Below, in pieces: positions 5,832 to 24,621 of a DNA stretch of 64,000 nt. The first letter of the stretch is position 1. Each line of letters starts with the position of its first letter. This DNA comes from Idiomarina piscisalsi (GTDB taxonomy: Bacteria > Pseudomonadota > Gammaproteobacteria > Enterobacterales > Alteromonadaceae): the NCBI RefSeq assembly GCF_002211765.1, contig NZ_CP022133.1, positions 992,001-1,056,000 of the forward strand, given 5' to 3'. Below the pieces are notes generated by a model, which saw only the letters and a program-made list of their open reading frames with translations, was not told where the DNA came from and made no database searches. The position numbers were made by a program, and so were the translations under genes.

Positions 5832-5927
5832 AGCATCGTTCCATTTTTATTATTGTTCGTTTGTCAGTTTGGCATAACCTGCTAAATTGTGCAGTTCAAA
5901 TATGGTTGTGGGGTATTGGCTGGACTA

Positions 5928-7142: not shown

Positions 7143-7178
7143 GGTATCTGGAAATAGTTATTAGAAATTATAGATAAA

Positions 7179-7197
7179 AATAAGAATAATTCGCATT
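7179..7197 (+). promoter_or_regulatory. Fur box upstream of the TonB-dependent receptor
   Basis: AATAAGAATAATTCGCATT matches the Fur-site variant AATGAGAATNATTCTCATT at all but two defined positions. It lies 63 bases before the receptor start, in a promoter-like AT-rich region. It implies iron repression of the receptor gene. The match was scored by eye. Confidence 0.7.
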
Positions 7198-7259
7198 TAC
7201 TATTTTAAGTCCCCTGAGTATGATGAGCGCCGCTAAAACATACAAAAGGGGATGAACAC

Positions 7260-9638
7260 ATGAAAAGGTTTCTGCCGAGTGCTGTTGCACTTTCTCTCGC
7301 TGCTACTTTCTCGCACGGCGCTATCGCCGAAACCGCAGCTATAAACATGGACGATATTGAGCGTATGGTAATTACGGCGTCAGGTTTTGAGCAAAAGCTA
7401 ACTGAGGCGCCCGCCAGCATTTCTGTCATTACAAATGAAGATCTGCGCTTGCGCTCATTTACCTCTTTGCTTGATGCGGTGAAATTCCAGGAAGGTGTTG
7501 ATATTGGTGTGTCTCGTGATAAAACAGATCAGGGCAGCATCAGTATGCGAGGGCTAACTGGCGAGTACACTCTCATACTGGTCGACGGAGTGCGGCAAAA
7601 CAATCATGGTGATATTTATCCGAATAATTTTGGCGGCAATGCGTTCAATCATATTCCGCCACTGACTGCAATTGATAGAATTGAGGTGATAAGAGGCCCG
7701 GCATCGACATTATACGGAGCCGATGCGCTAGGTGGTGTTATTAACGTCATTACTAAGAAACATGCCAACGAATGGAATGGCTCAATTAGCTTTGGTCGCA
7801 GCTTACAAACCGACGATGATTTCGGCGATGACTTTACCACTGACTTTCATGTTAGTGGACCTATTATTAAAGACGTTTTGACTATGGGTATTCGTGGTAG
7901 TCTCTATGACCAGCAGGCGTCTAACCCTGAGTTCGAGCCAGCAGTAGACCCCAACGGCACCGTTCATGTACGTCAACTCGGTTTCGGCAGCGGCGGCCGT
8001 ACTGTTGACAATACCGACGAGCATTACGGCTTTTCGTTGTCATTTACGCCTGCTGAAAACCAAAATCTGAAGTTCAATTTTGACGACTCGCATCAGTCGT
8101 ATGACAACACGCCAAGCTATGACTTAGAAACCGGTACTATTACTTATCCGCTGGGAACAAAAGACAGTATTGAGTCACTGTGGCAGGATCGTGGAGGAAA
8201 TGTCGCACCAAGAGCTGGCTATGCTCAAAATCAATCTTATGACCGCACCTGGTGGTCATTAATTCACGACGCTGAATGGTCGTTTGGTAGTAGTTTATTC
8301 TCAGTGTCGCATGTTGATACGCAAAATAATGGTCGGACATTACCGCTAAGCGTCGACGAGCGTTTGAGACTGCAGGAAATGTATGACGGTACAGGTGAAT
8401 ACGAAGGGCTCACTGAGCAAGAGCGGCGTCAAATTGCGGAAGATACTTTCCTGCCACGTCCGGCTCGACCTTTAGAAAGCAGTCAGTATACGGTTGACGT
8501 GCGCTTTGATATTCCTGTTGAAAATGTTGCGGGGCATCACAACCTGGTTGTTGGCGGTCAGCTTATTGACGGCGAGCTAAAAGATGGTGTTTTTGGCTTG
8601 GAAAACGGAAATGCTGGCGCTATTCAAGAGCAAAAAATGTACTCTCTTTTTGTTGAAGATAACTGGATGCCTATTGCTGATTTTACTCTAACCGGTGGTG
8701 TGCGTTATGACGAGCACGATGTTTTTGGTAGTCAGGTGTCTCCCCGGTTATACGCCGTTTATAACGTGTCACGAAGCTGGGTAGTGAAGGGCGGCGTGAG
8801 TACCGGTTATAAAACACCTAAAACAACTGACCTGTACGACGGAGTAACGGGTTTTGGCGGGCAAGGAACGATTCCTTTCGCCGGCAATCCGAATCTTGAG
8901 CCTGAAACCAGTGTTAACTCTGAAATCGCCTTGTACTGGAACTCTCAACAGGCTGATCACAACTTCAACATTACCTACTTCAATACTCAGTTTGAAGACA
9001 AAATTGGGCGTGGTGATACGGTTCCTAGTTGCGATATTACTGGTGGCGAGCGTCCTTGCGTTAACTTAGGCGATTATCAGGCGTTGGGTTATGACTCGTT
9101 TAGTCAGGTTATCAATATTGATGAAGTCGATTTGCAAGGCGTTGAAGTCGCCGGACGTTATGCCATTAGTCAGTTTTGGACGGTTCGGGGTAACTACACC
9201 TGGACGGACAGTGAGCAGGTAACGGGCAGCCAGGCTGGTCAGCCATTAACTAACACAGCGGAACACATGGCTAACCTTTGGTTAGAGTGGCAAGCCGCAG
9301 ATGACTTGAACATTTATCTGCAGGGAGAAATTCGTTCAGATCGCTATCGAGGCTATGACGCAGTGCTTGAAGAACAGCAGTACTATGAAAACTATAGCCT
9401 ATTGAACTTGGGACTAAGTTACCAACTGAATGACTATACCCAGGTAAACTTGCGTGTGAATAATTTGCTCGATCGCGACTTTACAACCTATTCAACGACC
9501 TACACCGACTTAAACGGCGACGGTGAATATGAGTACGTCACGGGACGTGGCGCAGTGAGTGAAGTTGTTTTTACTGATGACTATAACGTCAAAGATAAAG
9601 CCCGTAATTTATGGATGGGGGTGACGGTTACTTTCTAG
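7260..9638 (+). CDS. TonB-dependent outer-membrane receptor
   Basis: A 792-residue receptor with a signal peptide (residues 1-23, cleavage near AIAE). A TonB-box-like segment (ERMVITAS) follows, then a plug domain (about 45-160) ending in the typical IEVIRGPASTLYGADALGGVINVIT region, then a 22-strand-type barrel. The last residue is phenylalanine in a WMGVTVTF terminus, as expected for BAM-assembled barrels. The plug resembles FepA/CirA-type catecholate-siderophore receptors. The Fur box supports a role in ferric siderophore import. The specific ligand cannot be assigned. GGGG precedes the ATG by 7 bases. Confidence 0.92.
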   Translation: MKRFLPSAVALSLAATFSHGAIAETAAINMDDIERMVITASGFEQKLTEAPASISVITNEDLRLRSFTSLLDAVKFQEGVDIGVSRDKTDQGSISMRGLTGEYTLILVDGVRQNNHGDIYPNNFGGNAFNHIPPLTAIDRIEVIRGPASTLYGADALGGVINVITKKHANEWNGSISFGRSLQTDDDFGDDFTTDFHVSGPIIKDVLTMGIRGSLYDQQASNPEFEPAVDPNGTVHVRQLGFGSGGRTVDNTDEHYGFSLSFTPAENQNLKFNFDDSHQSYDNTPSYDLETGTITYPLGTKDSIESLWQDRGGNVAPRAGYAQNQSYDRTWWSLIHDAEWSFGSSLFSVSHVDTQNNGRTLPLSVDERLRLQEMYDGTGEYEGLTEQERRQIAEDTFLPRPARPLESSQYTVDVRFDIPVENVAGHHNLVVGGQLIDGELKDGVFGLENGNAGAIQEQKMYSLFVEDNWMPIADFTLTGGVRYDEHDVFGSQVSPRLYAVYNVSRSWVVKGGVSTGYKTPKTTDLYDGVTGFGGQGTIPFAGNPNLEPETSVNSEIALYWNSQQADHNFNITYFNTQFEDKIGRGDTVPSCDITGGERPCVNLGDYQALGYDSFSQVINIDEVDLQGVEVAGRYAISQFWTVRGNYTWTDSEQVTGSQAGQPLTNTAEHMANLWLEWQAADDLNIYLQGEIRSDRYRGYDAVLEEQQYYENYSLLNLGLSYQLNDYTQVNLRVNNLLDRDFTTYSTTYTDLNGDGEYEYVTGRGAVSEVVFTDDYNVKDKARNLWMGVTVTF

Positions 9639-11160: not shown

Positions 11161-12597
11161 GTGATTGCTGCGCAGTTTACGTTAAACGAGCTTGCCCCGG
11201 CATGGCAAAAGGATGTTGCGAACACGCACTTTTCAATGCCTGAAAACATTCTTTTGATGTACTCAAAAGAGTCTCCGTGGGGATTGCTGGCTGACAAAGA
11301 CTTGATTATAACCGACTTCTCGGTGGTTAAATCGACATTGCGAAGTAAGAATCCTGAGCGGAAGCCAAACTGGACAGGGTTGTATTACGACCTCTCTGCC
11401 GATGTCTGGACGATTACCTACCAAAAACCGATAGACTTAAATGGACAGCATTTAGCGAATGCGAGCTTTGATGTTGCGTTAGGCAGTTTGCTGAGTGATT
11501 TAACACAGAAAAAGAGACCTAAATCAGAACACATTGTTTTGAATACAAAGGGAGACTTAATTGCAGCATCCAACTTGTCTCAGGATTCAATCATTGAGCG
11601 CTCAACGCTGACTTCACAAACTTATGATGAGCCTTTGTATCAACAGTTGAGTCATCTGGTGATGGAGGCAGAGCTTAATGACACCTCTATAACGTTGGAA
11701 AATGCAGTAGATGATCAATTGCTTATTATTGATAAAATAGCTGGCCCTGATTGGTGGCACATAACCGCTTATCCGCTTGAGGAAATACGCAAGCAGGCTA
11801 TCATTTTACCGCTTCAACTGGTTGCCGCGGGTGTTGGTTTAGTGATAATGACATTGTTGATGACCTATTGGCTGATCCAGCGAGAAGTCTCCAAGCCATT
11901 GCATGAAGTTGCTACTGTGGCATCACTTATGGGTCAGCGAAACTATCAAGAAGCTTTGTCTCACCGTGCCGCATCAATAGAAGCGCGTGGTGAGGTCAAA
12001 CAGGCTTTGGATGCTTTTAAAACAATGGCCTCACGATTCATTGCCGCTCAAAATGACTTGGAGCAGCAGGTTGAGGCTCGTACGGAGGAGTTGGCCGAAG
12101 CAAACAGGCAACTTGACGCGCTGGCGCACATGGATGGGCTAACAGGGCTGTTCAATCGCAGGGCGTTTGATCGTGATCTGGAAGCTGCGATTGAATCAAG
12201 AAAGCCTTATTATTTAATGATGGCAGACATAGACGAGTTTAAGCCCTATAACGATAACTACGGACATGAGGCTGGCGACAGAGCATTGAAAAAAATAGCC
12301 GACTGTCTACTTGAAAGAACGCCACTGAAAGTCTATCGGTATGGGGGAGAAGAGCTTGCTATTATTATCCCCGCAGCTGAATCTATTGATAAAAAGTTGA
12401 ATGAGCTGCGTGAAGCGGTGATGACTTTGGCCATTCCTCATGACTTTAAGACAGCTGAGTTGTCGATACTGACAATAAGTATGGGGGCGGCTACTATTCA
12501 TTCAGATGAGTCAGCGGCTGATGCGATTAGACGGGCTGACCGGCAGTTATACGAAGCGAAAAAAGCCGGTCGGAATTGCGTATGTGTGGAGTCTTAG
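11161..12597 (+). CDS. C-terminal fragment: periplasmic sensor remainder, HAMP and GGDEF domain
   Basis: A reading frame of 478 residues from a GTG at 11161; the open frame extends back to 11068. It holds the remainder of the sensor domain, a membrane helix near residues 216-238, a HAMP-like segment, a short coiled coil (QNDLEQQVEARTEEL) and a GGDEF domain with GLTGLFNRRAF, ADIDEFKPYND and GGEEL. The GTG is unlikely to be the native start because the homologous protein continues upstream in the other frame. Confidence 0.5.
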   Translation: MIAAQFTLNELAPAWQKDVANTHFSMPENILLMYSKESPWGLLADKDLIITDFSVVKSTLRSKNPERKPNWTGLYYDLSADVWTITYQKPIDLNGQHLANASFDVALGSLLSDLTQKKRPKSEHIVLNTKGDLIAASNLSQDSIIERSTLTSQTYDEPLYQQLSHLVMEAELNDTSITLENAVDDQLLIIDKIAGPDWWHITAYPLEEIRKQAIILPLQLVAAGVGLVIMTLLMTYWLIQREVSKPLHEVATVASLMGQRNYQEALSHRAASIEARGEVKQALDAFKTMASRFIAAQNDLEQQVEARTEELAEANRQLDALAHMDGLTGLFNRRAFDRDLEAAIESRKPYYLMMADIDEFKPYNDNYGHEAGDRALKKIADCLLERTPLKVYRYGGEELAIIIPAAESIDKKLNELREAVMTLAIPHDFKTAELSILTISMGAATIHSDESAADAIRRADRQLYEAKKAGRNCVCVES

Positions 12598-14594
12598 TTC
12601 TGTAAGGGGACATAATACGAGCGCCCCTGATAGAGAATAGACGGTAGCATGGCATGTGCAACCACTTTGCGTAGGTGCTTTTCGCTCAAATTTTTACGGA
12701 GTGGCGTGAGCTCGTTCTGTGCCGGGGAGTAGAGAAACTGCTCTGCGGGTTTCTTGACTTGAAGTACCGTCAATATTTGCCCGTCTTTACTGCCTTGCAA
12801 CCAGCCATAATTGTCCTCAAATTGCATCATGGCTCGATTAGCCGGTTTAACATCTGATTGACTCAAGTCCTGCCCGATAGTTGGAACATAGGCGGAAGTG
12901 CCGGCTAAAGAAAGCAAGGTCGGAGCCAAATCAATTTGGCTGGTAATTGTAGATACTGTTTTTGGTTGAATATCAGCGCCCAAAATTAATCCCGGAATAT
13001 GAAACTTTTGCACCGGAACAAGTTCTTCGCCATAAACGCGGGTGTCGTGGTCAGCGACCACTAGAAATAGTGTATTATGCCAGTAGTCACTTTTTTTTGC
13101 CTTGGCGAAAAACTCACCGAGTGCATGATCCGCATACTTAACCGCATTGTGAACAGTTTGTTTCGGTTGCTCGGACAAGTTTATTTCCCCGTCAGGGAAT
13201 TCGAATGGCTCGTGATTCGATGAGGTAAATGCCAACGTAAACTGTGGTGTGGAAGCGTCTGTATTCACTAATCGTTGGTGTAACTTGTCGAATAAATCTT
13301 GATCGCTGACTCCCCAGCTGCCAACGAAGCGAGGGTTTTCGTAATCGTCCTGATCGGTGACGGACTGAAAGCCATTGCCGACAAAGAAACTCGCCATATT
13401 GTCGAAGTGCGCCTGGCCACCATAAATAAACTCGGTGTGGTAACCCTGACGACCTAGAACGTCTGCAAGCGTGAAAAACTGCCGTTGAGAGCCGGACAGC
13501 TTAACCGTAGAACGAGCCCGCGTTGGTAGAAAACCGGAAACAACTGCTTCGATACCGCGAACTGAGCGTATTCCAGTAGAGTACAGGCTCTCGAACCACC
13601 AACCCTGGCTTTTTAGGTGTTCAAGATTAGGCGTTAACGGCTTGCCCCCCAGTGACTCAACAAAAGTTGCTCCCAAACTTTCTTCCAGAATGATAACAAT
13701 GTTCAGCGGTTGGGAGCGGCTAACTGACGCCTGTTGGTAATGAACAGTCGGGTAGTTGTCATACGGGAATTCAGTGTTTCTTAAATATTCAGTTTGCCGA
13801 ATCTCGCTAATGACTTTGTCATTACTGAGCGAGCCATAGACACGATTGGCTTGTGCTTCGTGCTTAAGGTTGCAGAGTGCGTACTCCAACGTATAGGTGG
13901 AGTTTAAAATCAATGAATTCACCATGGCATCGGAGGTGACAGCAAAAAATGCCGGATTAGCGGGTCGGTGCGCGAGTGTTGAACGTATACCAAACAGCGT
14001 GCAAATTATTAAGATCGGTATGACACCGATAAGATAGCGACGTTTTATCGTTCGAGTGTTAAAACGGTTATCGGTTCTTTTATACCAACGGTACGCAACA
14101 AAAATAACGATTGTCGTAGAGGCGATGCCAATAAATAACCAACCTGCAAACCCGTTAATTAAAGTTGAAAATACCTCTTTAGGGTAGGCAAGATACTCAA
14201 AGAACAATCGGTTTGGACGAGTATCGTATTGTGCTAAAAATGCCGGTGTAGAAATTTCCATAAACCAGAATACGACGACACAAATGAGACTCCATACGAT
14301 CCATATACGTCGCCACCACAGCTGCATTAGTGGCTTATGCAGTGCGAACGCCATAGGCGATAACAGCAACAGTGGAATGAGAACAAAATAGCCGATTTGG
14401 ACGACATCTGCTCGAATGCCCAGCAATATAAAGTCAAACCAGCTAATAGCGTTGTCAACTCTATCGGAGTAGAGCCACGCCAGCATTAATCGGGAACTGC
14501 TCAGCAACGCCAGCGCTAGCAGAAAAAAGTACAATAGCGGCTTAAAAAGCGCCAGTGTTTGCCATAACGTATTCTGTGATCTTTCTGCAGGCAT
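12594..14594 (-). CDS. LTA synthase-like membrane sulfatase/phosphoglycerol transferase
   Basis: A 666-residue protein with about five N-terminal membrane helices (residues about 15-215) and a periplasmic sulfatase-fold domain. Motifs include VIILEESLG with the metal-binding Glu, YSTGIRSVRG at the nucleophile region (Ser where many relatives have Thr), TSSNHEPFEFP and VVADHDTRVYG. The family moves phosphoglycerol or phosphoethanolamine from a phospholipid to an envelope acceptor, releasing diacylglycerol. It is divergent from dgkA, which phosphorylates diacylglycerol, and a CTTAAG-N5-CTTAAG box lies between them. It overlaps the end of the convergent diguanylate cyclase by 4 bases. The acceptor is unknown: lipid A and periplasmic glucans are possible. 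Confidence 0.85.
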   Translation of the reverse strand: MPAERSQNTLWQTLALFKPLLYFFLLALALLSSSRLMLAWLYSDRVDNAISWFDFILLGIRADVVQIGYFVLIPLLLLSPMAFALHKPLMQLWWRRIWIVWSLICVVVFWFMEISTPAFLAQYDTRPNRLFFEYLAYPKEVFSTLINGFAGWLFIGIASTTIVIFVAYRWYKRTDNRFNTRTIKRRYLIGVIPILIICTLFGIRSTLAHRPANPAFFAVTSDAMVNSLILNSTYTLEYALCNLKHEAQANRVYGSLSNDKVISEIRQTEYLRNTEFPYDNYPTVHYQQASVSRSQPLNIVIILEESLGATFVESLGGKPLTPNLEHLKSQGWWFESLYSTGIRSVRGIEAVVSGFLPTRARSTVKLSGSQRQFFTLADVLGRQGYHTEFIYGGQAHFDNMASFFVGNGFQSVTDQDDYENPRFVGSWGVSDQDLFDKLHQRLVNTDASTPQFTLAFTSSNHEPFEFPDGEINLSEQPKQTVHNAVKYADHALGEFFAKAKKSDYWHNTLFLVVADHDTRVYGEELVPVQKFHIPGLILGADIQPKTVSTITSQIDLAPTLLSLAGTSAYVPTIGQDLSQSDVKPANRAMMQFEDNYGWLQGSKDGQILTVLQVKKPAEQFLYSPAQNELTPLRKNLSEKHLRKVVAHAMLPSILYQGRSYYVPLQN

Positions 14595-14647: not shown

Positions 14648-14664
14648 CTTAAGTTAAGCTTAAG
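14648..14664. promoter_or_regulatory. PmrA/BasR-like box between the LTA-synthase-like gene and dgkA
   Basis: CTTAAG (14648-14653), five bases TTAAG, CTTAAG (14659-14664). Two perfect hexamers at 11-bp spacing match the layout of PmrA boxes. It lies 55 bases before dgkA and 53 bases before the divergent gene. A candidate -10 (TTTAAT, 14688-14693) lies about 23 bases downstream on the dgkA side. The spacing recurs at two other sites in this region. Confidence 0.65.
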
Positions 14665-14719: not shown

Positions 14720-15079
14720 ATGAAACCAGGCTATACCGGTATGATGCGCATTTGGAAAGCAACGTTTAACTCGTTGCGCGGAATAAAAGTAGTCTGGCGT
14801 TATGAAGCAGCCTTTCGCCAGGAGGCACTGCTTTGTGCGGTATTGGTTCCGGTGGCATTGTTGGTTGAGGCTTCGATTGTAGAGCGCTTACTGCTTATTA
14901 CGAGTTTATTTATTTTGGTGATTACTGAATTACTAAATTCCGCAGTAGAAGCTGTTGTTGATCGAATCGGAGCAGAATTCCATGAGCTCAGCGGGCGTGC
15001 CAAGGACATTGCTTCAGCTGCTGTTTTCTTTGCATTGATACTGTTAATGGTTACCTGGGTAACGATTTTATTTTTTTAA
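14720..15079 (+). CDS. dgkA: diacylglycerol kinase
   Basis: A 119-residue integral membrane kinase, the normal length for bacterial DgkA. Three helices (about 33-48, 52-68 and 97-118) follow an amphipathic N-terminus (RIWKATFNSLRGI). The catalytic signature ELLNSAVEAVVDR is at 66-78, followed by GRAKDIASAAV. It phosphorylates diacylglycerol to phosphatidic acid with ATP, recycling the lipid by-product of envelope phosphotransferases, which suits its divergent neighbour. AGGAAA precedes the ATG by about 6 bases. Control by the CTTAAG box is inferred. Confidence 0.95.
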   Translation: MKPGYTGMMRIWKATFNSLRGIKVVWRYEAAFRQEALLCAVLVPVALLVEASIVERLLLITSLFILVITELLNSAVEAVVDRIGAEFHELSGRAKDIASAAVFFALILLMVTWVTILFF

Positions 15080-15135: not shown

Positions 15136-15152
15136 TTTAAGTTTTCCTTAAG
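15136..15152 (+). promoter_or_regulatory. PmrA/BasR-like box upstream of the hemolysin-to-sensor-kinase operon
   Basis: TTTAAG (15136-15141), five bases TTTTC, CTTAAG (15147-15152): one mismatch to a paired CTTAAG box at the same 11-bp spacing as the box near dgkA. It lies 64 bases before the first gene of an operon that ends with a response regulator and its kinase, suggesting autoregulation. Confidence 0.6.
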
Positions 15153-15216: not shown

Positions 15217-15816
15217 ATGCATCACTGTTGGATCCTGCCTGAACATCCGCTACGCGAACAGGTTGAAACGTTTATTTGTGAACGCTATTGGTTAAACTTC
15301 CATGCCTGCTTGCGCACATTGCCCCGTTTATTGATTGCTGTATTTGAAGAGAGTCGATTAGTGGCTGCGTGCGGGGTGCAATTAGCCGACGAACAAGCTC
15401 TATTCTCCCAAGCTTACCTAACCCAGCCTTTAGAGAACTATCGTGTTAGCGACAAACCGCTGCCTCAATCAGAAAACCTGGCTGAAGTTGGTTCTATGGC
15501 GGCGTTAACTCCGACGTACTTGCCACATTTATTTCGAGCTGTTGTGCGGTTATTGGACGATAAAGGTCGTGATGTGGTTATTTTTACAGCGACCCGAGCT
15601 CTGCAAAAATATTTTCGTCGCATAGGCGTTGCGTTAACTGAATTAGAAACGGCACATAAAAGTGCATTGCCTGAATCGGTGCGTGATCTTTGGGGCAACT
15701 ATTATCAGCACCAACCGACGGTGCTTGCTGGCTGGTTAACGGACGGGAACGTCTTTGAGCAAATGACTACATCCTGCCAGTACGTGTTGTCTCAGCAGCG
15801 AGAGGTTGCGATATGA
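15217..15816 (+). CDS. thermostable hemolysin family protein
   Basis: A 199-residue protein of the T_hemolysin family, named after the Vibrio delta-VPH hemolysin. It shows no signal peptide and no membrane helix. The pattern of an N-terminal acidic/aromatic segment (FICERYWLNFHA), a VAACGVQLA strand, the AEVGSMAALTP strand and VIFTATRALQKYFRRIG looks like a GNAT-type acyltransferase fold, so a biosynthetic role may fit better than membrane lysis; this is inference. AAGGAG lies at 15206-15211 ahead of the ATG. Its stop overlaps the next start by 4 bases (ATGA), making it the first gene of a tight operon. Confidence 0.82.
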   Translation: MHHCWILPEHPLREQVETFICERYWLNFHACLRTLPRLLIAVFEESRLVAACGVQLADEQALFSQAYLTQPLENYRVSDKPLPQSENLAEVGSMAALTPTYLPHLFRAVVRLLDDKGRDVVIFTATRALQKYFRRIGVALTELETAHKSALPESVRDLWGNYYQHQPTVLAGWLTDGNVFEQMTTSCQYVLSQQREVAI

Positions 15817-17192
15817 ACGTGTTCTTTGAACGTCTACAAGCGCACGCCAATACGAACCCTGAAGCGATTGCTATTCGCTCAGAACGAAGACAACTCAGCT
15901 ACTCAGAGCTGCTGCAATCCGTTGAGCAACGGGCGGAGCAATTGCGCCAACAACCTCAGCGACTCTTTTTATTGAAGGAAACTGCCCCGGTAACTTGGGT
16001 AATAGAAGATTTAGCGTTGATGCTGGCCGACAAAGTATGCATTCCGGTGCCGCCATTTTTTGGTCAGCAACAGCAAACTTATTTGCAGACGAAAGTGAGT
16101 GCAAATAAGCCGTTACCGTCAGGAACCGCAAAAGTGACCTTTACGTCTGGCAGTACCGGCGAACCCAAAGGCGTTTGTTTATCCGTTGATAACCAACTGA
16201 TTACGGTAGCTGCATTAGCTGAGCGGGTTGCCGGTTCTTGCGTAAAGCGACACATGGCTATTATGCCGCTGTCGGTGTTGCTGGAAAATGTGGCGGGTGT
16301 TTACCTGGCGTTATGGCTCGGCGCAGAGGTCGTGCTGCTGAGAAGTGAAACACTTGGGTTACAAGGTTCGTCGTCGTTGCAGTTCAATCCGTTTTTTACC
16401 GCACTGACTCAGTATCAACCCGACAGTTTGATTCTGACACCAGCGTTGTTGGACGTATTAGTTACTGGTGTGGAGCGCGGACTTATCAATGCCCGACAAT
16501 TCAAATTACTGGCCGTTGGCGGAGCCCGCTTAAGCGACACATTGGAAGAACGGGCTCTGGCGCTGAAACTACCTATTGTTCAGGGGTATGGCTTGTCGGA
16601 ATTCGGCTCTGTGGTAGCGCTCAATGCGCCTTCAAATAGCGAACCTGGCACAGTTGGACCGCCGCTAAAGCATGCACGGGTTTCGTTTGAGAATGGCGAG
16701 GTTGTCGTGCAAGGCAATGCCATGCTGGGGTACTGGGATGATAGAAGCAGTTGGTTTCCTGCACAAATTCATACTGGTGATCTCGGGGCTCTGGATGATA
16801 AGGGACGCCTGATTATTTTAGGACGCCGTAAGAACATTATCGTGACGGAGTACGGCCGCAATATTGATCCTGAATGGGTTGAATCAGAACTTTGCAGTCA
16901 GCCCTGTATTGCACAGGCAGCCGTCCTAGGTGATGAACAAACACCTTTGACCGCTTTATTAGTACTAATGCCCTCCACAACCACCGCACAGGCTGATACT
17001 GCGGTTAGTCAGGTGAATACACAGTTGCCGGACTATGCGTGTATTCAGCGATATATCGTAATGACCGAACCTTTTACGGTAAGCAATGGCTTATTAACTG
17101 GAACCGGACGATTGCGGCGTCAGGCTATCCAAGCGTTTTTTGAATTGAAAGATCCCGCATCGACTAACGAGGTAAATGATGAAATTTTTTAA
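15813..17192 (+). CDS. AMP-dependent acyl/aryl ligase
   Basis: A 459-residue adenylate-forming enzyme, shorter than typical long-chain acyl-CoA synthetases (about 550). The P-loop-like TFTSGSTGEPKG is at 109-120, GYGLSEFGS near 257-265, HTGDLGALDDKGRL near 322-335 and GRRKNIIVTEYGRNI near 338-352. The usual A10 catalytic lysine region reads GTGRLRR, so the expected Lys appears as Arg. It would activate a carboxylic acid, perhaps a fatty acid, as an adenylate. Position two of an operon with a diiron-type protein and an SDR suggests lipid-derived chemistry, but the substrate is unknown. Confidence 0.85.
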   Translation: MNVFFERLQAHANTNPEAIAIRSERRQLSYSELLQSVEQRAEQLRQQPQRLFLLKETAPVTWVIEDLALMLADKVCIPVPPFFGQQQQTYLQTKVSANKPLPSGTAKVTFTSGSTGEPKGVCLSVDNQLITVAALAERVAGSCVKRHMAIMPLSVLLENVAGVYLALWLGAEVVLLRSETLGLQGSSSLQFNPFFTALTQYQPDSLILTPALLDVLVTGVERGLINARQFKLLAVGGARLSDTLEERALALKLPIVQGYGLSEFGSVVALNAPSNSEPGTVGPPLKHARVSFENGEVVVQGNAMLGYWDDRSSWFPAQIHTGDLGALDDKGRLIILGRRKNIIVTEYGRNIDPEWVESELCSQPCIAQAAVLGDEQTPLTALLVLMPSTTTAQADTAVSQVNTQLPDYACIQRYIVMTEPFTVSNGLLTGTGRLRRQAIQAFFELKDPASTNEVNDEIF

Positions 17193-17844
17193 TACGTTAT
17201 GTGAACAAACTCAAAGCGAACAGCATTATCTATTGAGCGCACCGGCCATCCAACAAGCGTTACAAGGCGACATCACTGCCGAGCGCTATGGTGCATTTTT
17301 AACGCAGGCTTACCATCACGTAAAGCATACTACACCGTTACTCATGCGCTGTGGCAGCAAGCTCTCGTTCACCGATGAATGGTTACGTAAAGCGGTTATC
17401 GAGTATATCAATGAAGAGTACGGTCACGAGCGTTGGATTTTAAATGATATTCAAGCGGCTGGTGGTGATGCGCAGGCAGTACAAAATAGTCAGCCACATA
17501 CAGCCACTCAGGCAATGGTGTCATTAGTTTACCACGCTATCGATAATGAACATCCGGCGGCGTTTTTTGGTATGGCGCATGTGCTGGAGGGAACGAGCGT
17601 TAAATTGGCGACACAAGCTGCGGGAAAAATTAAAGCAGCTCTGGGACTACCAGATTCAGCGTTCAGCTATTTGTTGTCGCACGGAGACCTTGATCAGGAG
17701 CACGTTCACTTTTTTGAACAGTTGATGAATAAGGTGACCGATGAAAATGCACAGCGAGTGATTATACGGACCGCAAAAAATGTCTATCGGCTTTATGGTG
17801 ACATGTTCCGCGCCTTGCCTGAACTGGCTGAGGAACCTGTATGA
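17179..17844 (+). CDS. haem-oxygenase-like iron-containing redox enzyme (HDO/TenA-like fold)
   Basis: About 221 residues, all helical, of the iron-containing redox enzyme family related to UndA and CADD. Candidate metal ligands, numbered from the ATG at 17176, are Glu81 and His84 (NEEYGHERW), Glu138 (HVLEGTS) and His176/His178 (DLDQEHVHFFE), plus His47/48/51 in the first core helix. Known relatives use a diiron or iron centre and O2 to oxidise fatty acids or amino-acid-derived substrates. Of two tandem ATGs (17176, 17179) the second has better spacing from GAGG. It overlaps the ligase gene. Acting on the ligase product is inference. Confidence 0.78.
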   Translation: MKFFNTLCEQTQSEQHYLLSAPAIQQALQGDITAERYGAFLTQAYHHVKHTTPLLMRCGSKLSFTDEWLRKAVIEYINEEYGHERWILNDIQAAGGDAQAVQNSQPHTATQAMVSLVYHAIDNEHPAAFFGMAHVLEGTSVKLATQAAGKIKAALGLPDSAFSYLLSHGDLDQEHVHFFEQLMNKVTDENAQRVIIRTAKNVYRLYGDMFRALPELAEEPV

Positions 17845-18659
17845 AAAATAACGTTAACGTCATCGATTGGTCTCGACAAACGATTGTGCTAACAGGAGCC
17901 GCCGGTGGGCTTGGTGAAGCGTTGGCAGAAGCACTTAGTCAACGTGGCGCTCGCGTAGTCTTGGTTGGACGCTCGGCGGAAAAGCTGGACGCGCTGGCAA
18001 CTCGTTTGCAACAAACATCGTTTGTCGCTGATATGACTCAAGCGGATGACCGACAACGGCTAGTTCAGTTTCTACAGCGACAGGAGTCATCATTGACCGG
18101 GCTTATTAATAATGCTGCGGTCACGCATGAGGGCCTCTTTAATGAGGCAACAGAAACCGATATAGAGCGAGTTATTTCCACTAACCTGACAGCGCCTGTC
18201 GCACTGACCCGCCAACTACTTCCGTTACTGAAAGTTCAGCAGGGGTGGGTATTACATGTGGGGTCGGTGTTTGGTGCTATCGGCTTTCCGGGGCAAGTGT
18301 TGTACTGCGCCAGCAAATTTGGTTTGCGGGGCTTTACACAAGCACTACAGCGTGAATTGAAGGCACACGATGCCTGCATTATGTACGCGGCTCCGCGTGC
18401 TATCAAAACATCGCTTAATCAAGGTTTGTTAAGCCAATTAAACCAACGCTTGAAGACACCGCAAGATCCGCCGCAACAAGTGGCACTGCAATTAATTAAA
18501 CAAATTCAACGGCAGAAGCAGATACAAACGTTGGGCTGGCCCGAACGACTATTCGTTCGTCTTAATGGATTGTGGTCGGAGCTGGTCAGTCGCAGCTTGC
18601 GTAAAACACGAGATACGTTGTATCAATTAATTGAGGAAAATCATCATGAAAAAAACTAA
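17841..18659 (+). CDS. short-chain dehydrogenase/reductase
   Basis: A 272-residue classical SDR. The cofactor motif TGAAGGLGEA is at about 19-28, NNAA near 91, and the catalytic Tyr and Lys are in YCASK near 155. An Arg after the second strand (VVLVGRSAEK) favours NADP(H). The C-terminal extension (about 200-272) is basic and may carry the substrate specificity or touch the membrane. It overlaps the preceding gene by 4 bases. Within the operon it could reduce or oxidise the product of the ligase and diiron enzyme; this step is inferred. Confidence 0.88.
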   Translation: MKNNVNVIDWSRQTIVLTGAAGGLGEALAEALSQRGARVVLVGRSAEKLDALATRLQQTSFVADMTQADDRQRLVQFLQRQESSLTGLINNAAVTHEGLFNEATETDIERVISTNLTAPVALTRQLLPLLKVQQGWVLHVGSVFGAIGFPGQVLYCASKFGLRGFTQALQRELKAHDACIMYAAPRAIKTSLNQGLLSQLNQRLKTPQDPPQQVALQLIKQIQRQKQIQTLGWPERLFVRLNGLWSELVSRSLRKTRDTLYQLIEENHHEKN

Positions 18660-19305
18660 AGTAATCGCATTCTTTATCGCTGGCTTTTTAAGCCTATCCG
18701 TTTTCTCTGCTGAGCTCTATTCCAGCGTTAACAGTCAACAGCGGCTGCATGATCTGCAACAACGCTGGGCCACTGTTAACTATACACTTAAGGACGACGC
18801 CCAGGAAAAAGCGTTTGAGCAATTGGTTGCAGATGCCCAACAGTGGGTTGAACAAGAGCCTGAGTCCGCGCCCGCACATATTTGGCTGGGTATTGTAAAA
18901 AGTACCTACGCGGGTGCAAAAGGAGGGCTTGGGGCATTGAGCTTGGCGAAGGAGTCGCGAAAGTCTCTGGAGAAAGCGTTGGAAATCGATCCAAATGCAC
19001 TAAGCGGCTCAGCCTATGCGTCATTGGGTACCTTATATTATAAAGTGCCCGGCTGGCCGTTTGGGTTTGGTGATGATGATAAAGCGGAAGAGCTATTGGA
19101 AAAAGCACTAGCAATTAACCCTAATGGCATTGACCCAAATTACTTTTACGCTGATTATTGGTTTGAACAGGGTGAGTACGTAAAAGCGGAAAGCTATGCG
19201 AATAAGGCGCTTGCCGCAGCACCACGACCTGACCGACCTCTTGCTGACGAATTTCGGCGGAAAGAAGTGGAACAGCTCTTGGCCAGAATAAAACGTGAAC
19301 AGTAA
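18646..19305 (+). CDS. exported tetratricopeptide-type protein
   Basis: About 219 residues from the ATG at 18646, which has GAGG 6-7 bases upstream and overlaps the SDR gene by 14 bases. The N-terminus is a signal peptide (VIAFFIAGFLSLSVFSA, cleavage near 23). The mature part shows TPR-like helices: APAHIWLGIVKSTYAG, ARESxxLEKALEIDPNA-type units near 98-115, LEKALAINPNGIDPNY near 150, and AESYANKALAAAP near 186. It probably acts as a periplasmic scaffold or adaptor within the system encoded by this operon. No enzymatic motif is visible. Confidence 0.8.
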   Translation: MKKTKVIAFFIAGFLSLSVFSAELYSSVNSQQRLHDLQQRWATVNYTLKDDAQEKAFEQLVADAQQWVEQEPESAPAHIWLGIVKSTYAGAKGGLGALSLAKESRKSLEKALEIDPNALSGSAYASLGTLYYKVPGWPFGFGDDDKAEELLEKALAINPNGIDPNYFYADYWFEQGEYVKAESYANKALAAAPRPDRPLADEFRRKEVEQLLARIKREQ

Positions 19306-19323: not shown

Positions 19324-19986
19324 ATGGATCTATTGTTAATCGAGGATGACGGGATGTTGGGACAGGCTGTTGAAATTGGCCTGTCTGAACGTCAGTTTTC
19401 GGTGCAGTGGGTAAGGACCGGAGCGGCTGCTATCAGTGAAAGTCAGCGGGCGCCTTATGACGCCGTTGTACTGGACCTCGGGCTACCCGATTTGGATGGT
19501 AGCCGAGTGTTGTCTGCGTTACGTAAAAAAGGTCAGCTGATGCCAGTGTTGGTGTTAACCGCGCGCGACGATAGTTCCGAGACCGTTAAATTGTTAGATC
19601 TGGGGGCGGATGACTATATGGTTAAGCCTTTCGATATGAATGAGCTGGCTGCGCGCTTGCGCGCGTTGGTTAGGCGTCAGCGCGGACAGGCGTCGGCTGA
19701 ACTGGTGGTTGGACCTATTCGTCTTGACGAAGTTAACTTTCAGGTTTTGGTCGATGAACAGCCGATTAACTTATCCCGACGTGAATTTGAGCTGTTACGC
19801 GCGTTAATGACGTCACCGGGACGTGTGCATAGCCGTGATAAGTTAGAGCAAGTGGTGTTTCGTAACGAACAGCAAGTGGAAAGCAATGCGTTGGAAGTGC
19901 ATGTACATAATCTGCGAAAGAAACTCGGCAATAAGGAGTGGATTCAGACCATTAGAGGGGTAGGGTATCGCCTGGCATGCAAATAA
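19324..19986 (+). CDS. OmpR-family response regulator, PmrA/QseB-like
   Basis: A 220-residue regulator with an N-terminal receiver domain: acidic pocket Glu7, Asp8 and Asp9, phosphoacceptor Asp51, a VLTARDD segment and the conserved Lys in VKPF near 101. The C-terminal winged helix (about 125-218) includes LSRREFELLRAL and the terminal TIRGVGYRL. It is most like the PmrA/BasR/QseB group. It is followed by its kinase with a 10-base overlap and preceded by the lipid-type genes. Paired CTTAAG boxes upstream of this operon, of dgkA and of the cytochrome gene are its likely targets; that link is inferred. Confidence 0.9.
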   Translation: MDLLLIEDDGMLGQAVEIGLSERQFSVQWVRTGAAAISESQRAPYDAVVLDLGLPDLDGSRVLSALRKKGQLMPVLVLTARDDSSETVKLLDLGADDYMVKPFDMNELAARLRALVRRQRGQASAELVVGPIRLDEVNFQVLVDEQPINLSRREFELLRALMTSPGRVHSRDKLEQVVFRNEQQVESNALEVHVHNLRKKLGNKEWIQTIRGVGYRLACK

Positions 19987-21329
19987 TTAGCCGTATAAGA
20001 ACAAAACTAAACTCCATACGTCGGCGCATTCTGGTTGCGGTATCGGCTGTCTATTTATTGAGTTCGGCCGTCTCTGCCACGTGGATTTATGCCGAAATCA
20101 GTCATGAAGTCGATGAGTTGTTTGACGCTGAAATGGTGCAGCAGGCGAAAACCTTGCTTGCACTTTTACCCCAAAATAATGAGTACGCGGATCGCGACAT
20201 TACCATTAGTCGTATTAATGCACATTCATATGAGGACAAACTCTCTTATCGTATCGAAACCACCTCTGGTGAGAGTCTATTGCAAACAGAAGGCTCGCTG
20301 GATCCGTCAGTGATTACCTTTAACGAAGGCTTTGCGGTTAAAATGATCAATAACGAGCTGTGGCATAGCTTCGGTTTATATTCGGCTGCAGGCGATTACC
20401 GCATTTTGCTGTTGCAGCAGGATGAATTCCGCTCTGAAATTCGCAATGATCTGACGGTTGATACCGTGATACCTATTATCACACTATTACCATTGATGCT
20501 GTGGCTAGGCTGGTGGACAATAAATCGCAACTTCGCGAGCTTCAGACGGTTAGCCGGAGCACTTAGACGCAAACGCTCAGACGACTACCGACCGTTTTCA
20601 GAGTCCAACGATACTGAAGAGGTCGCGTTAGTTAAAACTGCACTGAACCATTATTTACATCGCATTGAGCAAACATTCTTACGGGAAAAGCAGTTTTCTG
20701 CCGATGCAGCACACGAACTACGAACGCCGCTGGCAAGCCTGAAGGCTCAGTTACAAAATCAGATAGTCAAAGCGACGACCGATCAGCAAAAGTCTGAGCT
20801 CCAGTCGCTACTGGAAAGTACTGAGCGACTGGTGAGTCTGGTTGAAAGTTTACTATTGTTATCAAAAACAGAGCTTCCTCCTGAACAGTGGCGACAAGTG
20901 AATGCTGCGGCGGTTATTCGGCAAGTAATTTCTGACTATTATCCAAAAGCAGAAGTCCTGCAGTTGTCGCTAGAGGTGAATTTGCCTGATACCGTTGACT
21001 GGCGCTCTGAAGAAAGTTATCTGGCGGTATTATTCAGCAATTTGGTTGATAACGCGATTAAATATGCCCGACCGGCATCAACAGTAGATATTGCCTTTGA
21101 TGGCTCTGCGTTTGTCATTCGAAATTCGGTAGAAGCGACACATCATATTGATGTTCAACGCCTCACTGAACGTTTTTATCGCGGGGGACAGTTGCGTGAA
21201 CGAGGCTCTGGGCTCGGCTTAAGTATCGTAAGTAACCTGGCTCGGCAGCTCGGTTTAATACTGACATTCGAGCATCAAGATGGCGATTTCATCGTAAAAG
21301 TTGATCGACATCATAAAGAAGGAGAGTAA
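19977..21329 (+). CDS. sensor histidine kinase, PmrB/QseC-like
   Basis: A 450-residue two-helix sensor kinase. Helix 1 is near 17-40 and helix 2 near 161-182, enclosing a periplasmic sensor domain of about 120 residues with several acidic residues (EYADRD, EEVDELFDAE-like stretches). The phosphorylated His246 is in AADAAHELRTPLAS-type sequence. The N box NLVDNAIKYA and the G box ERGSGLGLSIV define the catalytic ATPase domain. It should phosphorylate the adjacent response regulator. The stimulus is unknown; for PmrB/QseC relatives cations, pH or antimicrobial peptides are known signals. Confidence 0.9.
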   Translation: MQIISRIRTKLNSIRRRILVAVSAVYLLSSAVSATWIYAEISHEVDELFDAEMVQQAKTLLALLPQNNEYADRDITISRINAHSYEDKLSYRIETTSGESLLQTEGSLDPSVITFNEGFAVKMINNELWHSFGLYSAAGDYRILLLQQDEFRSEIRNDLTVDTVIPIITLLPLMLWLGWWTINRNFASFRRLAGALRRKRSDDYRPFSESNDTEEVALVKTALNHYLHRIEQTFLREKQFSADAAHELRTPLASLKAQLQNQIVKATTDQQKSELQSLLESTERLVSLVESLLLLSKTELPPEQWRQVNAAAVIRQVISDYYPKAEVLQLSLEVNLPDTVDWRSEESYLAVLFSNLVDNAIKYARPASTVDIAFDGSAFVIRNSVEATHHIDVQRLTERFYRGGQLRERGSGLGLSIVSNLARQLGLILTFEHQDGDFIVKVDRHHKEGE

Positions 21330-21349: not shown

Positions 21350-21366
21350 TTTAATGCTCGCTTAAG
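21350..21366 (+). promoter_or_regulatory. PmrA/BasR-like box upstream of cytochrome b561
   Basis: TTTAAT (21350-21355), five bases GCTCG, CTTAAG (21361-21366): the same 11-bp hexamer spacing as the two boxes upstream, 43 bases before the cytochrome start. It is the weakest of the three in sequence but keeps the geometry. Confidence 0.5.
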
Positions 21367-21409: not shown

Positions 21410-21904
21410 ATGAACAGTAAATACACACCATTATCGCGCACACTTCATTGGCTTGGGGCGTTATCAATTTTTACCATACTGACACTTGGTTTTATGATGG
21501 TGTTTGCTGACTCCAGAGAGGTTAAACACTATTCCGAAGCCGCTCATATTGGTGTTGGTTTTTTTGTTTTCTTTATTGTTGCCTGGCGTATTGTTTTGCG
21601 CTTTTATCAAGGTTTTCCTGAGTCAACCACAACGGTAAAAGACAAACTCGTCAGATATCTTCATTATGCTTTATTACTAACTATGTTGGTCTTAATTGTA
21701 ACAGGGCCTCTTTATCTGTTTACCGAAAATGATCCTTTATCGGTATTTGGATGGTTCAGCGTATCCATGGACTTAAGTGGATTGCCATGGCTGCATGAGC
21801 CCTCAGAAGAAATACATAAAGTATTAGGTACGTATGTATTACCAGTGCTGGTTACTTTACATATTGCCGGTGGTGTTTGGCACTTTTACAAAGAAAAGGA
21901 CTAA
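21410..21904 (+). CDS. cytochrome b561-type membrane electron carrier
   Basis: A 164-residue four-helix membrane protein of the cytochrome b561/CybB type. Candidate haem-ligating histidines are His13 (RTLHW), His46 (AAHIG), His85 (YLHYA), His136 and His151 (TLHIAGG). It would carry electrons between quinols and a periplasmic or membrane acceptor. AAGGAG precedes the ATG. It has its own CTTAAG-type box 81 bases after the sensor-kinase stop, so it may be a separate member of the same regulon. It could donate electrons to the operon's diiron protein, but no evidence shows this. Confidence 0.85.
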   Translation: MNSKYTPLSRTLHWLGALSIFTILTLGFMMVFADSREVKHYSEAAHIGVGFFVFFIVAWRIVLRFYQGFPESTTTVKDKLVRYLHYALLLTMLVLIVTGPLYLFTENDPLSVFGWFSVSMDLSGLPWLHEPSEEIHKVLGTYVLPVLVTLHIAGGVWHFYKEKD

Positions 21905-22994: not shown

Positions 22995-24041
22995 TTGACA
23001 TTGCCAACCGTGCTCTACTATAAAAACAACAAAGCACTTATTTCGCTGCTGAAAAGTATTAAAAACAAAGTATCGCTAAGCCGCTCCAGGAAAGAGTTGG
23101 ACGCGGTTATTTCTGAGCTCAAATCCTTTCCCGGTAGTTATCAGCTTAAAACAAAAGTCTATTGGATTATTTTTACCGTCTTATTATTGGTGACCGGGCT
23201 ATTGGGTTACTGGGACTGGTCCCAGCGACAGCATTTTCAGCAAAGCACCTGGATTATTATTGCCGTTGGTGGCTTGTTAACGGTGCTTGCTGGTATTACA
23301 GCCTATTATCCTCATCGTCTTATGTCGAAAGTGTCTCATGCTTTATTGCAGCGCGACGGCCTGCTCGACAACAACCTGACGTTGGTAAGCTTTAACGGCA
23401 AAGCTACCGCTCAACAGTTTCAGCAACGCTTTAGCGAGTTTCACCGAGGCAACTACAGCCGTGAAATTAAAGAACTGTTTAAAGGCAGTTACCAGGGCGA
23501 TGAATATTCGTTTGACTATCACTATTACCATTTTCATTACGTCGATGAGCGTATTGTTACCGAAACCTACACTGACAGTAACGGCCGGGTAAGAACGCGC
23601 ACTCGTCGCGAGTACGATCATTATGATCGCTATGGTCTGATTTTACCTTTTGGCTTACTGCGTAATTTTGTGGTTATTGGTTTTAACCTTCCCGGAGCGG
23701 GTAAAGCAACTTACAAGCCTGCATCTAACCGTTTTAATAAAATGTTTAAGGTGGTCGCTGCTAGTGAGATTGAAGCGGCTAAAGCCATGAAGCCGACGGT
23801 TGTTGTCGCCTTTGAAGAACTTAGCAATGTACTATCGAAAATAAACTTCGAGGTGAATGACGCGGCCGATTTATGTCTTTCATTTGCCGACAAAGATCTT
23901 ATTGTAACACCCAATAGAGTAAAAATTAGCGAATTTGACGCCTTTATTGATGCGTTGGAAGGCGAACAGGAACTTGAAAAACTAAGAGCGACACTGAGTC
24001 ATGTTCATTATGTAATGACTAAATTGGACAGTAATTTTTAG
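22995..24041 (+). CDS. DUF3137-type membrane protein, LemA partner
   Basis: Up to 348 residues. Two membrane helices lie near 53-71 and 82-103. A long cytoplasmic or periplasmic domain follows with an unusual Tyr/His-rich stretch (DYHYYHFHYVDE near 176) and a DSNGRVRTRTRREYDHYDRYG segment. It resembles DUF3137 proteins, which are commonly encoded next to LemA. The start is uncertain: TTG at 22995 and GTG at 23010 are both possible and neither has a good ribosome-binding site. The stop lies 10 bases before lemA, so the two are almost certainly one operon. The function is unknown. Confidence 0.7.
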   Translation: MTLPTVLYYKNNKALISLLKSIKNKVSLSRSRKELDAVISELKSFPGSYQLKTKVYWIIFTVLLLVTGLLGYWDWSQRQHFQQSTWIIIAVGGLLTVLAGITAYYPHRLMSKVSHALLQRDGLLDNNLTLVSFNGKATAQQFQQRFSEFHRGNYSREIKELFKGSYQGDEYSFDYHYYHFHYVDERIVTETYTDSNGRVRTRTRREYDHYDRYGLILPFGLLRNFVVIGFNLPGAGKATYKPASNRFNKMFKVVAASEIEAAKAMKPTVVVAFEELSNVLSKINFEVNDAADLCLSFADKDLIVTPNRVKISEFDAFIDALEGEQELEKLRATLSHVHYVMTKLDSNF

Positions 24042-24051
24042 GAGCAAATAA

Positions 24052-24621
24052 ATGACTGGAATATGGATAGCGGTTGGTATTGCGGTAGTTTTGGTGATAG
24101 CCATTATTGCCATTTATAACGCCATTATTAACCGGGCGAATGCCGTTGAACGGGCTTGGGCAAACGTTATTACGCAAGAGCGCCAGAAGAATAAAATCAT
24201 TCCGCATTTAGAGGATGAGGTAAAAGATTACAAAGAGTTTGAACAGGGAACACTGACTAAAGTCACCGAGCTTCGCAGTGCGCTACAGGGCTTAGATAGC
24301 GGGAAAGTTGATACCACAAAACTGGAACAGGCTGAAGCAAAAACGGGTGAGTTACTAAAAAGCTTAAATGTCACCGTTGAAAATTACCCTGAATTGAAAG
24401 CGTCAGAAACCTATCAGAAACTCATGCGCGAAATTACCGACCAACAGGAAAACATTGGCGCAGCGATTCGTATTTTTAACCAAAACGTGGAAGACTTTAA
24501 TAATGGCATTGAAGTGTTTCCGAACTCACTGGTTAATGCCATGCTGAACCGTAAGGAAAAAATAAAAACGTTTTCTGATTCTCAGGCAGAAGAAGGCTTT
24601 GAGTATAAGCCTAATATCTAG
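24052..24621 (+). CDS. lemA: LemA family protein
   Basis: A 189-residue LemA-type protein with one N-terminal membrane helix (about 4-26). Coiled-coil helices follow, containing the family pattern NRANAVERAWANV, then the ENYPELKASETYQKLMREI and RIFNQNVEDFNNGIEVFPNS segments. Its biochemical role is not well defined. AGGAG precedes the ATG by 8 bases. It sits between a DUF3137 protein and an OmpA-domain lipoprotein, suggesting an envelope-associated set. Confidence 0.9.
   Translation: MTGIWIAVGIAVVLVIAIIAIYNAIINRANAVERAWANVITQERQKNKIIPHLEDEVKDYKEFEQGTLTKVTELRSALQGLDSGKVDTTKLEQAEAKTGELLKSLNVTVENYPELKASETYQKLMREITDQQENIGAAIRIFNQNVEDFNNGIEVFPNSLVNAMLNRKEKIKTFSDSQAEEGFEYKPNI

What the first reader, a model, noticed from the sequence alone, without database searches (positions are those of the whole stretch)
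15217..19305. Candidate undescribed lipid- or fatty-acid-modifying operon under two-component control
Thermostable-hemolysin family protein, short AMP ligase, haem-oxygenase-like diiron protein, SDR and an exported TPR protein overlap end to end (4, 14-17, 4 and 14 bases) and are followed directly by a PmrA/PmrB-like pair. Activation, oxidation and reduction steps suggest a small pathway acting on a fatty acid or similar acid, with an envelope output. The 'hemolysin' may be a GNAT-fold acyltransferase rather than a lysin. The pathway itself is inference.
Basis: partly seen in the sequence, partly recalled or inferred. Interest (0 to 1): 0.75.

Follow-up and report, generated by a model that had tools for sequence, protein, structure and literature searches.

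The report
PmrA-box operon with misnamed 'hemolysin'
Five overlapping genes that travel together through many Proteobacteria look like an undescribed pathway for an acylated small lipid, probably switched on by an envelope-stress type regulator, and the gene labelled 'thermostable hemolysin' is probably the enzyme that attaches the fatty chain.

Summary
In detail: coordinates, overlaps and gene identities are right. The five genes (THL 'thermostable hemolysin', AMP ligase, haem-oxygenase-like oxidase HDO, SDR, exported TPR protein) form a real unit: 134 of 139 distinct THL loci read carry all five, in gamma- and betaproteobacteria; copies elsewhere are less complete. In 8 of the 139, ligase and oxidase are one protein. 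THL is predicted (pLDDT 91.6) to have an acyltransferase fold whose first-ranked solved matches are LuxI-type synthases, so it is probably an N-acyltransferase, not a lysin; yet the Arg of the LuxI/OlsB motif is absent in 134 of 134. HDO keeps its metal-ligand set (63 of 63). New here: a PmrA/QseB-type box (CTTAAG-N5-CTTAAG) upstream of THL far above chance (>=11/12 in 78 of 142 regions, 0.05 expected), tracking the adjacent two-component pair; in the host genome the only two exact sites lie 0.5 kb apart here. Best reading: a PmrA/QseB-controlled pathway making an oxidised N-acyl lipid for the envelope. Substrate, product and step order are inference. Ten searches of an open-licence library found no description of the operon; one paper reports its apparent Pseudomonas copy induced 38-389-fold by fungal exudate, read as beta-oxidation.

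The parts
15136..15152 (.). PmrA/QseB-type box TTTAAG-N5-CTTAAG (11/12), with a weaker third half-site to 15163; 64 bases before the THL start
   Evidence: upstream of THL in 78 of 142 regions at >=11/12 against 0.05 in shuffles; 74 of 136 distinct loci
15217..15816 (+). THL, PF12261 'thermostable hemolysin'; predicted GNAT/LuxI-like acyltransferase, 199 aa
15813..17192 (+). AMP-forming ligase (ANL superfamily), 459 aa; the A10 catalytic-lysine position is Arg433
17176..17844 (+). HDO: haem-oxygenase-like diiron oxidase, PF14518, 222 aa; likely ligands E81, H84, E138, H169, D173, H176
17841..18659 (+). SDR of NCBIfam PRK09072 family (304 bits, cut-off 238); N115-S142-Y155-K159 invariant in 63 of 63
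18646..19305 (+). TPR protein with N-terminal signal peptide by inspection
19324..19986 (+). OmpR-type response regulator, groups with E. coli BasR(PmrA)/QseB
19977..21329 (+). sensor histidine kinase, nearest QseC profile
14648..14664 (.). exact CTTAAG-N5-CTTAAG box (weaker third half-site to 14675) between the divergent sulfatase-fold gene and dgkA
12594..14594 (-). membrane sulfatase-fold transferase (PF00884; nearest NCBIfam, far below cut-off: phosphoglycerol transferase I), possibly co-regulated
14720..15079 (+). DgkA diacylglycerol kinase, possibly co-regulated
21350..21366 (.). weaker box TTTAAT-N5-CTTAAG (10/12), 43 bases before cytochrome b561
21410..21904 (+). cytochrome b561 (PF01292), recurrent neighbour (23 of 139 loci)

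Best explanation
A PmrA/QseB-type two-component system senses an envelope or metal stress and switches on, through a CTTAAG-N5-CTTAAG box before THL, an operon that makes an N-acylated, oxidatively tailored lipid. Most likely steps: (1) THL, a LuxI/FeeM-like N-acyltransferase, moves a fatty acyl chain from acyl-ACP or acyl-CoA onto an amine, probably of an amino acid; (2) the AMP ligase adenylates a carboxylate, either of that N-acyl amino acid or of the acid feeding THL; (3) the diiron HDO, fused to the ligase in some species, oxidises the product with O2 (desaturation, hydroxylation or decarboxylation); (4) the SDR reduces the resulting carbonyl; (5) the exported TPR protein helps to place the product in the envelope. 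Gene unit, box, predicted folds of THL and HDO, and the fusion are computed results; regulator binding, the signal, substrates, order, product and role are inferred.
For: Unit: all five genes in 134 of 139 distinct loci; distances between the five proteins correlate over those 134 loci (Spearman 0.27-0.69, lowest with TPR; shared ancestry not removed). Ligase-HDO fused in 8 of 139 and in L269. THL: AlphaFold pLDDT 91.6; Foldseek ranks 1-3 are TofI, TofI, LasI, FeeM is rank 6, MesI has the highest listed TMq, 0.58; profile comparison with six LuxI-like proteins 81%, E 1.3e-5, unrelated controls below 0.5%; E90 aligned to the LuxI/OlsB glutamate and invariant in 134 of 134; no signal peptide by inspection. 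HDO: six likely metal-ligand positions invariant in 63 of 63, model 94.6, matches CADD and lauric-acid-bound UndA. Control: box >=11/12 in 78 of 142 upstream regions against 0.05 in shuffles; >=10/12 in 77 of 88 loci with the regulator downstream against 16 of 40 with none near, p=7e-8 (phylogeny not corrected); only two exact sites in the host genome, both here. Neighbours: b561 in 23, FTR1 plus cupredoxin in 20, DgkA in 10 (nine of them Idiomarina-type loci), EptA in 5 of 139. Precedent: ChoA, annotated hemolysin, is an N-acyltransferase whose lipid product, not the purified protein, lyses cells (PMC5643525, passages).
Against: Fold match is moderate (TMq 0.37-0.58 in the 50 rows listed) and general acetyltransferases also match (222 hits at E<=0.001). 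With only three clear LuxI sequences the profile match falls to 43%, with eight OlsB-like proteins to 7%. The Arg of the ExxR motif is absent in 134 of 134 (N 103, S 18, H 12, Q 1). The ligase's A10 lysine is Arg in 122 of 134, so its half-reactions may be unusual. No carrier protein gene lies between the overlapping genes. 42 of 139 loci have no such regulator near, and 37 of 136 have no box >=10/12. Envelope role rests on neighbours in a minority of loci. Outside gamma/beta the unit is looser. FTR1, cupredoxin and VIT neighbours could mean metal handling instead.
Confidence: 0.5

Rival explanations
1. Fatty-acid catabolism: the genes activate and oxidise fatty acids for growth, as authors read the apparent Pseudomonas alcaligenes copy.
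For: In P. alcaligenes AVO110 genes annotated AMP-binding FadD, iron-containing redox enzyme, SDR, TPR and response regulator, consecutive in numbering, rise 389-, 373-, 318-, 107- and 38-fold in fungal exudate (PMC8304167, passages and section 3.4); fadD of that cluster was among genes found by signature-tagged mutagenesis as needed in exudate.
Against: No acyl-CoA dehydrogenase, hydratase or thiolase in the unit; HDO and an N-acyltransferase fold are not beta-oxidation enzymes; the PmrA/QseB-type box and DgkA/EptA neighbours point elsewhere.
Confidence: 0.1
2. The product is a secreted signal or surfactant, and the adjacent two-component pair senses it.
For: THL fold class is that of AHL synthases and FeeM; regulator lies downstream in 89 of 139 loci; the name 'hemolysin' would fit a heat-stable surfactant lipid, as for ChoA.
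Against: Regulator family and box are the general PmrA/QseB type, the box being shared with dgkA/sulfatase-fold and b561 genes; no exporter in the conserved unit; 42 of 139 loci have no such regulator near.
Confidence: 0.17
3. The pathway makes a metal-binding small molecule (metallophore-like), not an envelope lipid.
For: FTR1 permease plus cupredoxin in 20 of 139 loci, mostly right after the kinase; VIT-family neighbours on the Pantoea and Paracoccus plasmids; Paracoccus has a TauD/TfdA oxygenase where HDO is absent.
Against: No TonB receptor or NRPS in the conserved unit; 119 of 139 loci show no FTR1 or cupredoxin in the flanks examined (flanks of 16 loci are short).
Confidence: 0.13
4. THL is a true protein cytolysin and the other genes are an unrelated stress operon.
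For: Family name, from hemolysis of a Vibrio relative (recalled).
Against: No signal peptide by inspection, acyltransferase fold, tight unit with enzymes.
Confidence: 0.04

Closest known systems
LuxI-type AHL synthases, FeeM, OlsB and ChoA/COG3176 N-acyltransferases
   Same: Predicted fold; glutamate of the ExxR-type motif; ChoA was likewise annotated hemolysin
   Different: THL is not listed for PF00765 or PF13444 at E<=0.01 and has N/S/H/Q instead of the motif Arg; I recall no other member in an operon with ligase, HDO and SDR
Oxazolone-lipid pathways OxzAB, TyzACB, TrzAS
   Same: Logic: N-acyltransferase plus ATP-dependent carboxylate activation and O2-dependent oxidation, the last two fused in OxzB and TrzS (PMC12856293, abstract and passages)
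   Different: Those use a ThiF-like cyclase and a flavin oxidase; here an ANL ligase and a diiron oxidase, plus SDR and TPR
UndA, CADD and other haem-oxygenase-like diiron oxidases
   Same: Fold and likely metal ligands
   Different: UndA is not found by sequence at E<=1; CADD's model is far from reached (36.6 of 200 bits)
PmrAB/BasRS and QseBC regulons; CprA
   Same: Regulator type, box form (recalled), EptA/DgkA neighbours in some loci; CprA is a PmrAB-controlled SDR proposed to act on lipids (PMC11752146, abstract, outline and passages)
   Different: CprA is an extended SDR, not this SDR family; regulator and kinase here reach neither the PmrAB nor the QseBC cut-offs

Membership tests
PF12261 T_hemolysin | profile score above cut-off | tested here: met
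   150.9 bits, cut-off 27
LuxI/OlsB N-acyltransferases | Pfam PF00765 or PF13444 match | tested here: not met
   only PF12261 listed at E<=0.01
LuxI/OlsB N-acyltransferases | fold | tested here: met
   model pLDDT 91.6; ranks 1-3 TofI, TofI, LasI, TMq 0.51-0.56; general acetyltransferases match too
LuxI/OlsB N-acyltransferases | ExxR motif | tested here: not met
   Glu 134 of 134, Arg 0 of 134
LuxI/OlsB N-acyltransferases | acyl transfer to an amine | not testable with these tools
   needs enzyme assay
Haem-oxygenase-like diiron oxidases (HDO) | PF14518 and six metal ligands | tested here: met
   112.7 bits; E81, H84, E138, H169, D173, H176 in 63 of 63; that these are the ligands is recalled from UndA/CADD; metal binding untested
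CADD p-aminobenzoate synthase | TIGR04305 score; sacrificial Tyr | tested here: not met
   36.6 bits against 200; the column aligned to CADD Tyr27 (number recalled) is Ile in the consensus
UndA 1-undecene synthase | sequence kinship | tested here: not met
   no UndA chain at E<=1, though folds match
ANL acyl-CoA/ACP ligases | PF00501 and A10 catalytic lysine | tested here: inconclusive
   PF00501 117.8 bits; A10 position Arg in 122, Lys in 12 of 134; Arg in the window
PmrAB or QseBC | NCBIfam equivalog cut-offs | tested here: not met
   RR 215.6/330 PmrA, 213.5/345 QseB; HK 214/475 QseC, 128/314 PmrB
PmrA/QseB-type regulators | clade and tandem CTTAAG box | tested here: met
   tree with E. coli BasR and QseB (support values not examined); boxes; binding untested
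OxzAB/TrzAS oxazolone pathway | ThiF-like cyclase and flavin oxidase | tested here: not met
   neither domain in the operon's proteins

The most novel reading that the evidence does not exclude
A second, unrelated enzyme set has converged on the oxazolone-lipid logic: THL N-acylates an amino acid, the ANL ligase (with its altered A10 lysine) activates the carboxylate so that it cyclises without CoA or carrier, the oxidase, in some species fused to it, desaturates it and the SDR tailors it, giving a new envelope or signalling lipid under PmrA/QseB-type control. The heat-stable 'hemolysin' of this family would then be a lipid, not a protein.
Probability: 0.15. Interest if true: 0.87.

Novelty: new variant of a known kind. 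Interest (0 to 1): 0.72.

Why it matters
The unit is common (THL in 78 of 398 sampled Pseudomonadota genomes; all five genes in 35 of the 36 of those contexts read), occurs on plasmids, one typed conjugative, and carries a virulence label that is probably wrong. It predicts an undescribed lipid and the enzyme that makes it, links it to a regulator family tied to polymyxin and metal stress, and makes the question what 'thermostable hemolysin' really is directly testable.

Tried and rejected
Paper searches (10 of 10 used) found no description of the operon; the library holds open-licence papers only. Three further papers opened for their HDO annotation gave nothing that I could tie to this unit (PMC8069873, PMC9431628, PMC7296048; passages). 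An apparent lack of HDO in L270, L272, L277 and of SDR in L276 was an artefact of my ORF choice. A first profile comparison (66%) used wrong frames for several rows and was redone. The control-ORF test gave boxes >=11/12 before 19 of 557 other ORFs and >=10/12 before 28, above the shuffle rate; six of the 19 are divergent b561 genes of Pseudomonas whose site is the THL box read backwards, and one is the sulfatase-fold gene of Idiomarina abyssalis (L118), so this control is not clean. Of six other OmpR-type regulators of the host put in the tree (of seven), one, a 422-aa protein on a long branch, fell inside the operon clade; two regulators lying upstream of the unit (L163, L169) fell outside. 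Promoter and terminator scans were at chance level. pABA synthase, UndA, AHL synthase proper and cytolysin readings were set aside on the tests listed. Whether PF12261 already sits in an acetyltransferase clan of Pfam was not checked. That the P. alcaligenes cluster is this operon rests on its annotation and order, not on sequence. Of 142 upstream regions, six pairs come from the same genome; without them 74 of 136 score >=11 and 99 >=10.
Full report
What is there. The window lies in a 2.59-Mb genome; the closest named HDO relatives are from Idiomarina. From 15217 five genes overlap end to end and run into a two-component pair; coordinates and overlaps match the finding. Pfam and NCBIfam give: THL (PF12261), AMP-binding ligase, Haem_oxygenas_2 oxidase (HDO), SDR of the PRK09072 family, TPR protein, OmpR-type regulator, histidine kinase. 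Upstream is dgkA, then a divergent sulfatase-fold membrane transferase; downstream cytochrome b561.

Is it a unit? I read contexts anchored on THL (66 loci: 6 plasmid, 59 genome, the window) and on HDO (the best 80 of 582 confirmed relatives in named genomes, a capped list). In the first set AMP, HDO, SDR and TPR are present in 64, 63, 63 and 64 of 66. In the second all 80 have the ligase and 79 THL, the other being cut by the contig end. In a sample of 398 Pseudomonadota genomes 78 have THL; I read 36 of those 78 contexts (L058-L093), and AMP, HDO and TPR were present in 36, SDR in 35. The two sets share 6 loci; without duplicates, 134 of 139 THL loci have all five, two have THL alone and three lack one gene. 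Five named loci have TPR before SDR (L147, L151, L152, L171, L187). In 8 of the 139, ligase and HDO are one reading frame, and so they are in L269. Protein distances correlate across 134 loci, least for TPR. Within the host's genus 14 of 19 genomes searched, the host counted, have THL, so presence is patchy.

Outside gamma- and betaproteobacteria the unit is looser. In the class of G301, unnamed and taken by me to be Alphaproteobacteria without proof, 13 of 289 genomes have THL. Of ten further loci read (nine of that class, one, L277, from the phylum sample), six have all five genes, two lack TPR, one has only THL and ligase, one only THL. Of 20 plasmid records with THL I read eight: five carry all five genes (Citrobacter, Pantoea, Variovorax, Vibrio, Photobacterium), Paracoccus has THL, ligase and SDR with a TauD/TfdA oxygenase and no HDO, Methylosinus and Rhizobium have THL without ligase or HDO in the stretch.

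Regulation. Two direct CTTAAG hexamers 11 bases apart, the form recalled for PmrA and QseB, precede THL. In 142 upstream regions the best site scores 12/12 in 22, >=11 in 78 and >=10 in 105; shuffles that keep dinucleotides give 0.05 at >=11 and about 1.5 at >=10. Among 136 distinct loci 74 reach 11 and 99 reach 10. Sites of >=10 occur in 77 of 88 loci with the regulator downstream and in 16 of 40 with none near (Fisher p=7e-8; >=11: 56 of 88 and 13 of 40, p=0.001); loci are related, so the p-values are too small. In the host genome only two places match YTTAAG-N5-YTTAAG exactly: 15136-15152 before THL and 14648-14664 between dgkA and the sulfatase-fold gene; with one mismatch allowed 71 strand-matches occur against 39 for the reversed pattern. 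A weaker site precedes b561. In six named Pseudomonas loci a divergent b561 gene shares the THL box. Other ORFs of the named loci have a site >=11 in 19 of 557. Downstream regulators of the named loci group with E. coli BasR and QseB; one long-branched host protein also fell inside that clade, and I did not examine support values. The kinase is nearest QseC.

Proteins. THL: 42-row alignment, model pLDDT 91.6; Foldseek ranks TofI, TofI, LasI first, with FeeM, MesI and many general acetyltransferases below. hhalign against six LuxI-like proteins gives 81% and E 1.3e-5, against three clear LuxI 43%, against eight OlsB-like 7%, against HDO, TPR and SDR profiles below 0.5%. E90 falls on the glutamate of the LuxI/OlsB motif and is invariant; the Arg is never present. 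In ChoA both residues of that motif were needed. So THL may work like, but is not a sequence member of, those families. Ligase: nearest solved structures by sequence are MenE and fatty-acyl ligases, but the A10 lysine is Arg in 122 of 134. HDO: likely ligand positions invariant in 63 of 63, model 94.6, nearest solved folds 3dde and CADD and, at rank 11, UndA with lauric acid; TenA and haem oxygenases match too. SDR: N115, S142, Y155, K159 invariant in 63 of 63.

Neighbours. With profiles made from these loci, b561 lies near in 23 of 139 loci, FTR1 permease and cupredoxin in 20, DgkA in 10 (nine Idiomarina-type), EptA in 5; 123 of 139 loci have at least 3.5 kb on both sides. In L151 THL, AMP, HDO, TPR, SDR, EptA, PAP2, regulator, kinase, cupredoxin and FTR1-type genes are on one strand.

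Literature. No paper in ten searches describes the operon. Seen: PMC8304167 (passages, section 3.4; strong induction in fungal exudate, read as beta-oxidation), PMC6344628 (passages; fadD), PMC10469919 (passages; a network links VP1729 THL and VP1731 HDO to regulator VP1735), PMC5643525 (passages; ChoA), PMC4657338 (abstract and outline), PMC12856293 (abstract, outline, passages), PMC11752146 (abstract, outline, passages), and three by passages that did not help.

Verdict. A real, widespread, apparently undescribed gene unit under probable PmrA/QseB-type control; the most likely product is an oxidised N-acyl lipid. Unit, box, predicted folds and fusion are computed results; chemistry and role are inference.

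Noticed in passing
L265 (Paracoccus sp. AK26 plasmid pAK1) 6962-11200: THL, ligase and SDR genes without HDO, followed by a TauD/TfdA-annotated oxygenase and a DUF6134 protein, near glycosyltransferase, b561/PepSY and two-component genes: possible replacement of one O2-dependent iron oxidase by another. No box found upstream (7/12).
   Followed up: partly
L150, L151, L161, L164 downstream of the kinase: Recurrent cupredoxin, FTR1-like permease and unknown exported-looking protein genes, the first overlapping the kinase gene.
   Followed up: partly
window 20-2391, 5889-9638: Two PepSY-TM proteins, the second joined to FAD/NAD/2Fe-2S reductase domains, an ArsP_2 exporter (5889-7142) and a TonB receptor (7260-9638): possible metal-related block.
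   Followed up: no
window 22995-24041: 348-aa protein without a Pfam match at E<=1e-5, directly before a LemA-family gene 24052-24621.
   Followed up: no
L197: Contig titled Klebsiella pneumoniae MAG carries the unit with EptA, cupredoxin and FTR1-type genes like marine loci; the label looks doubtful.
   Followed up: no
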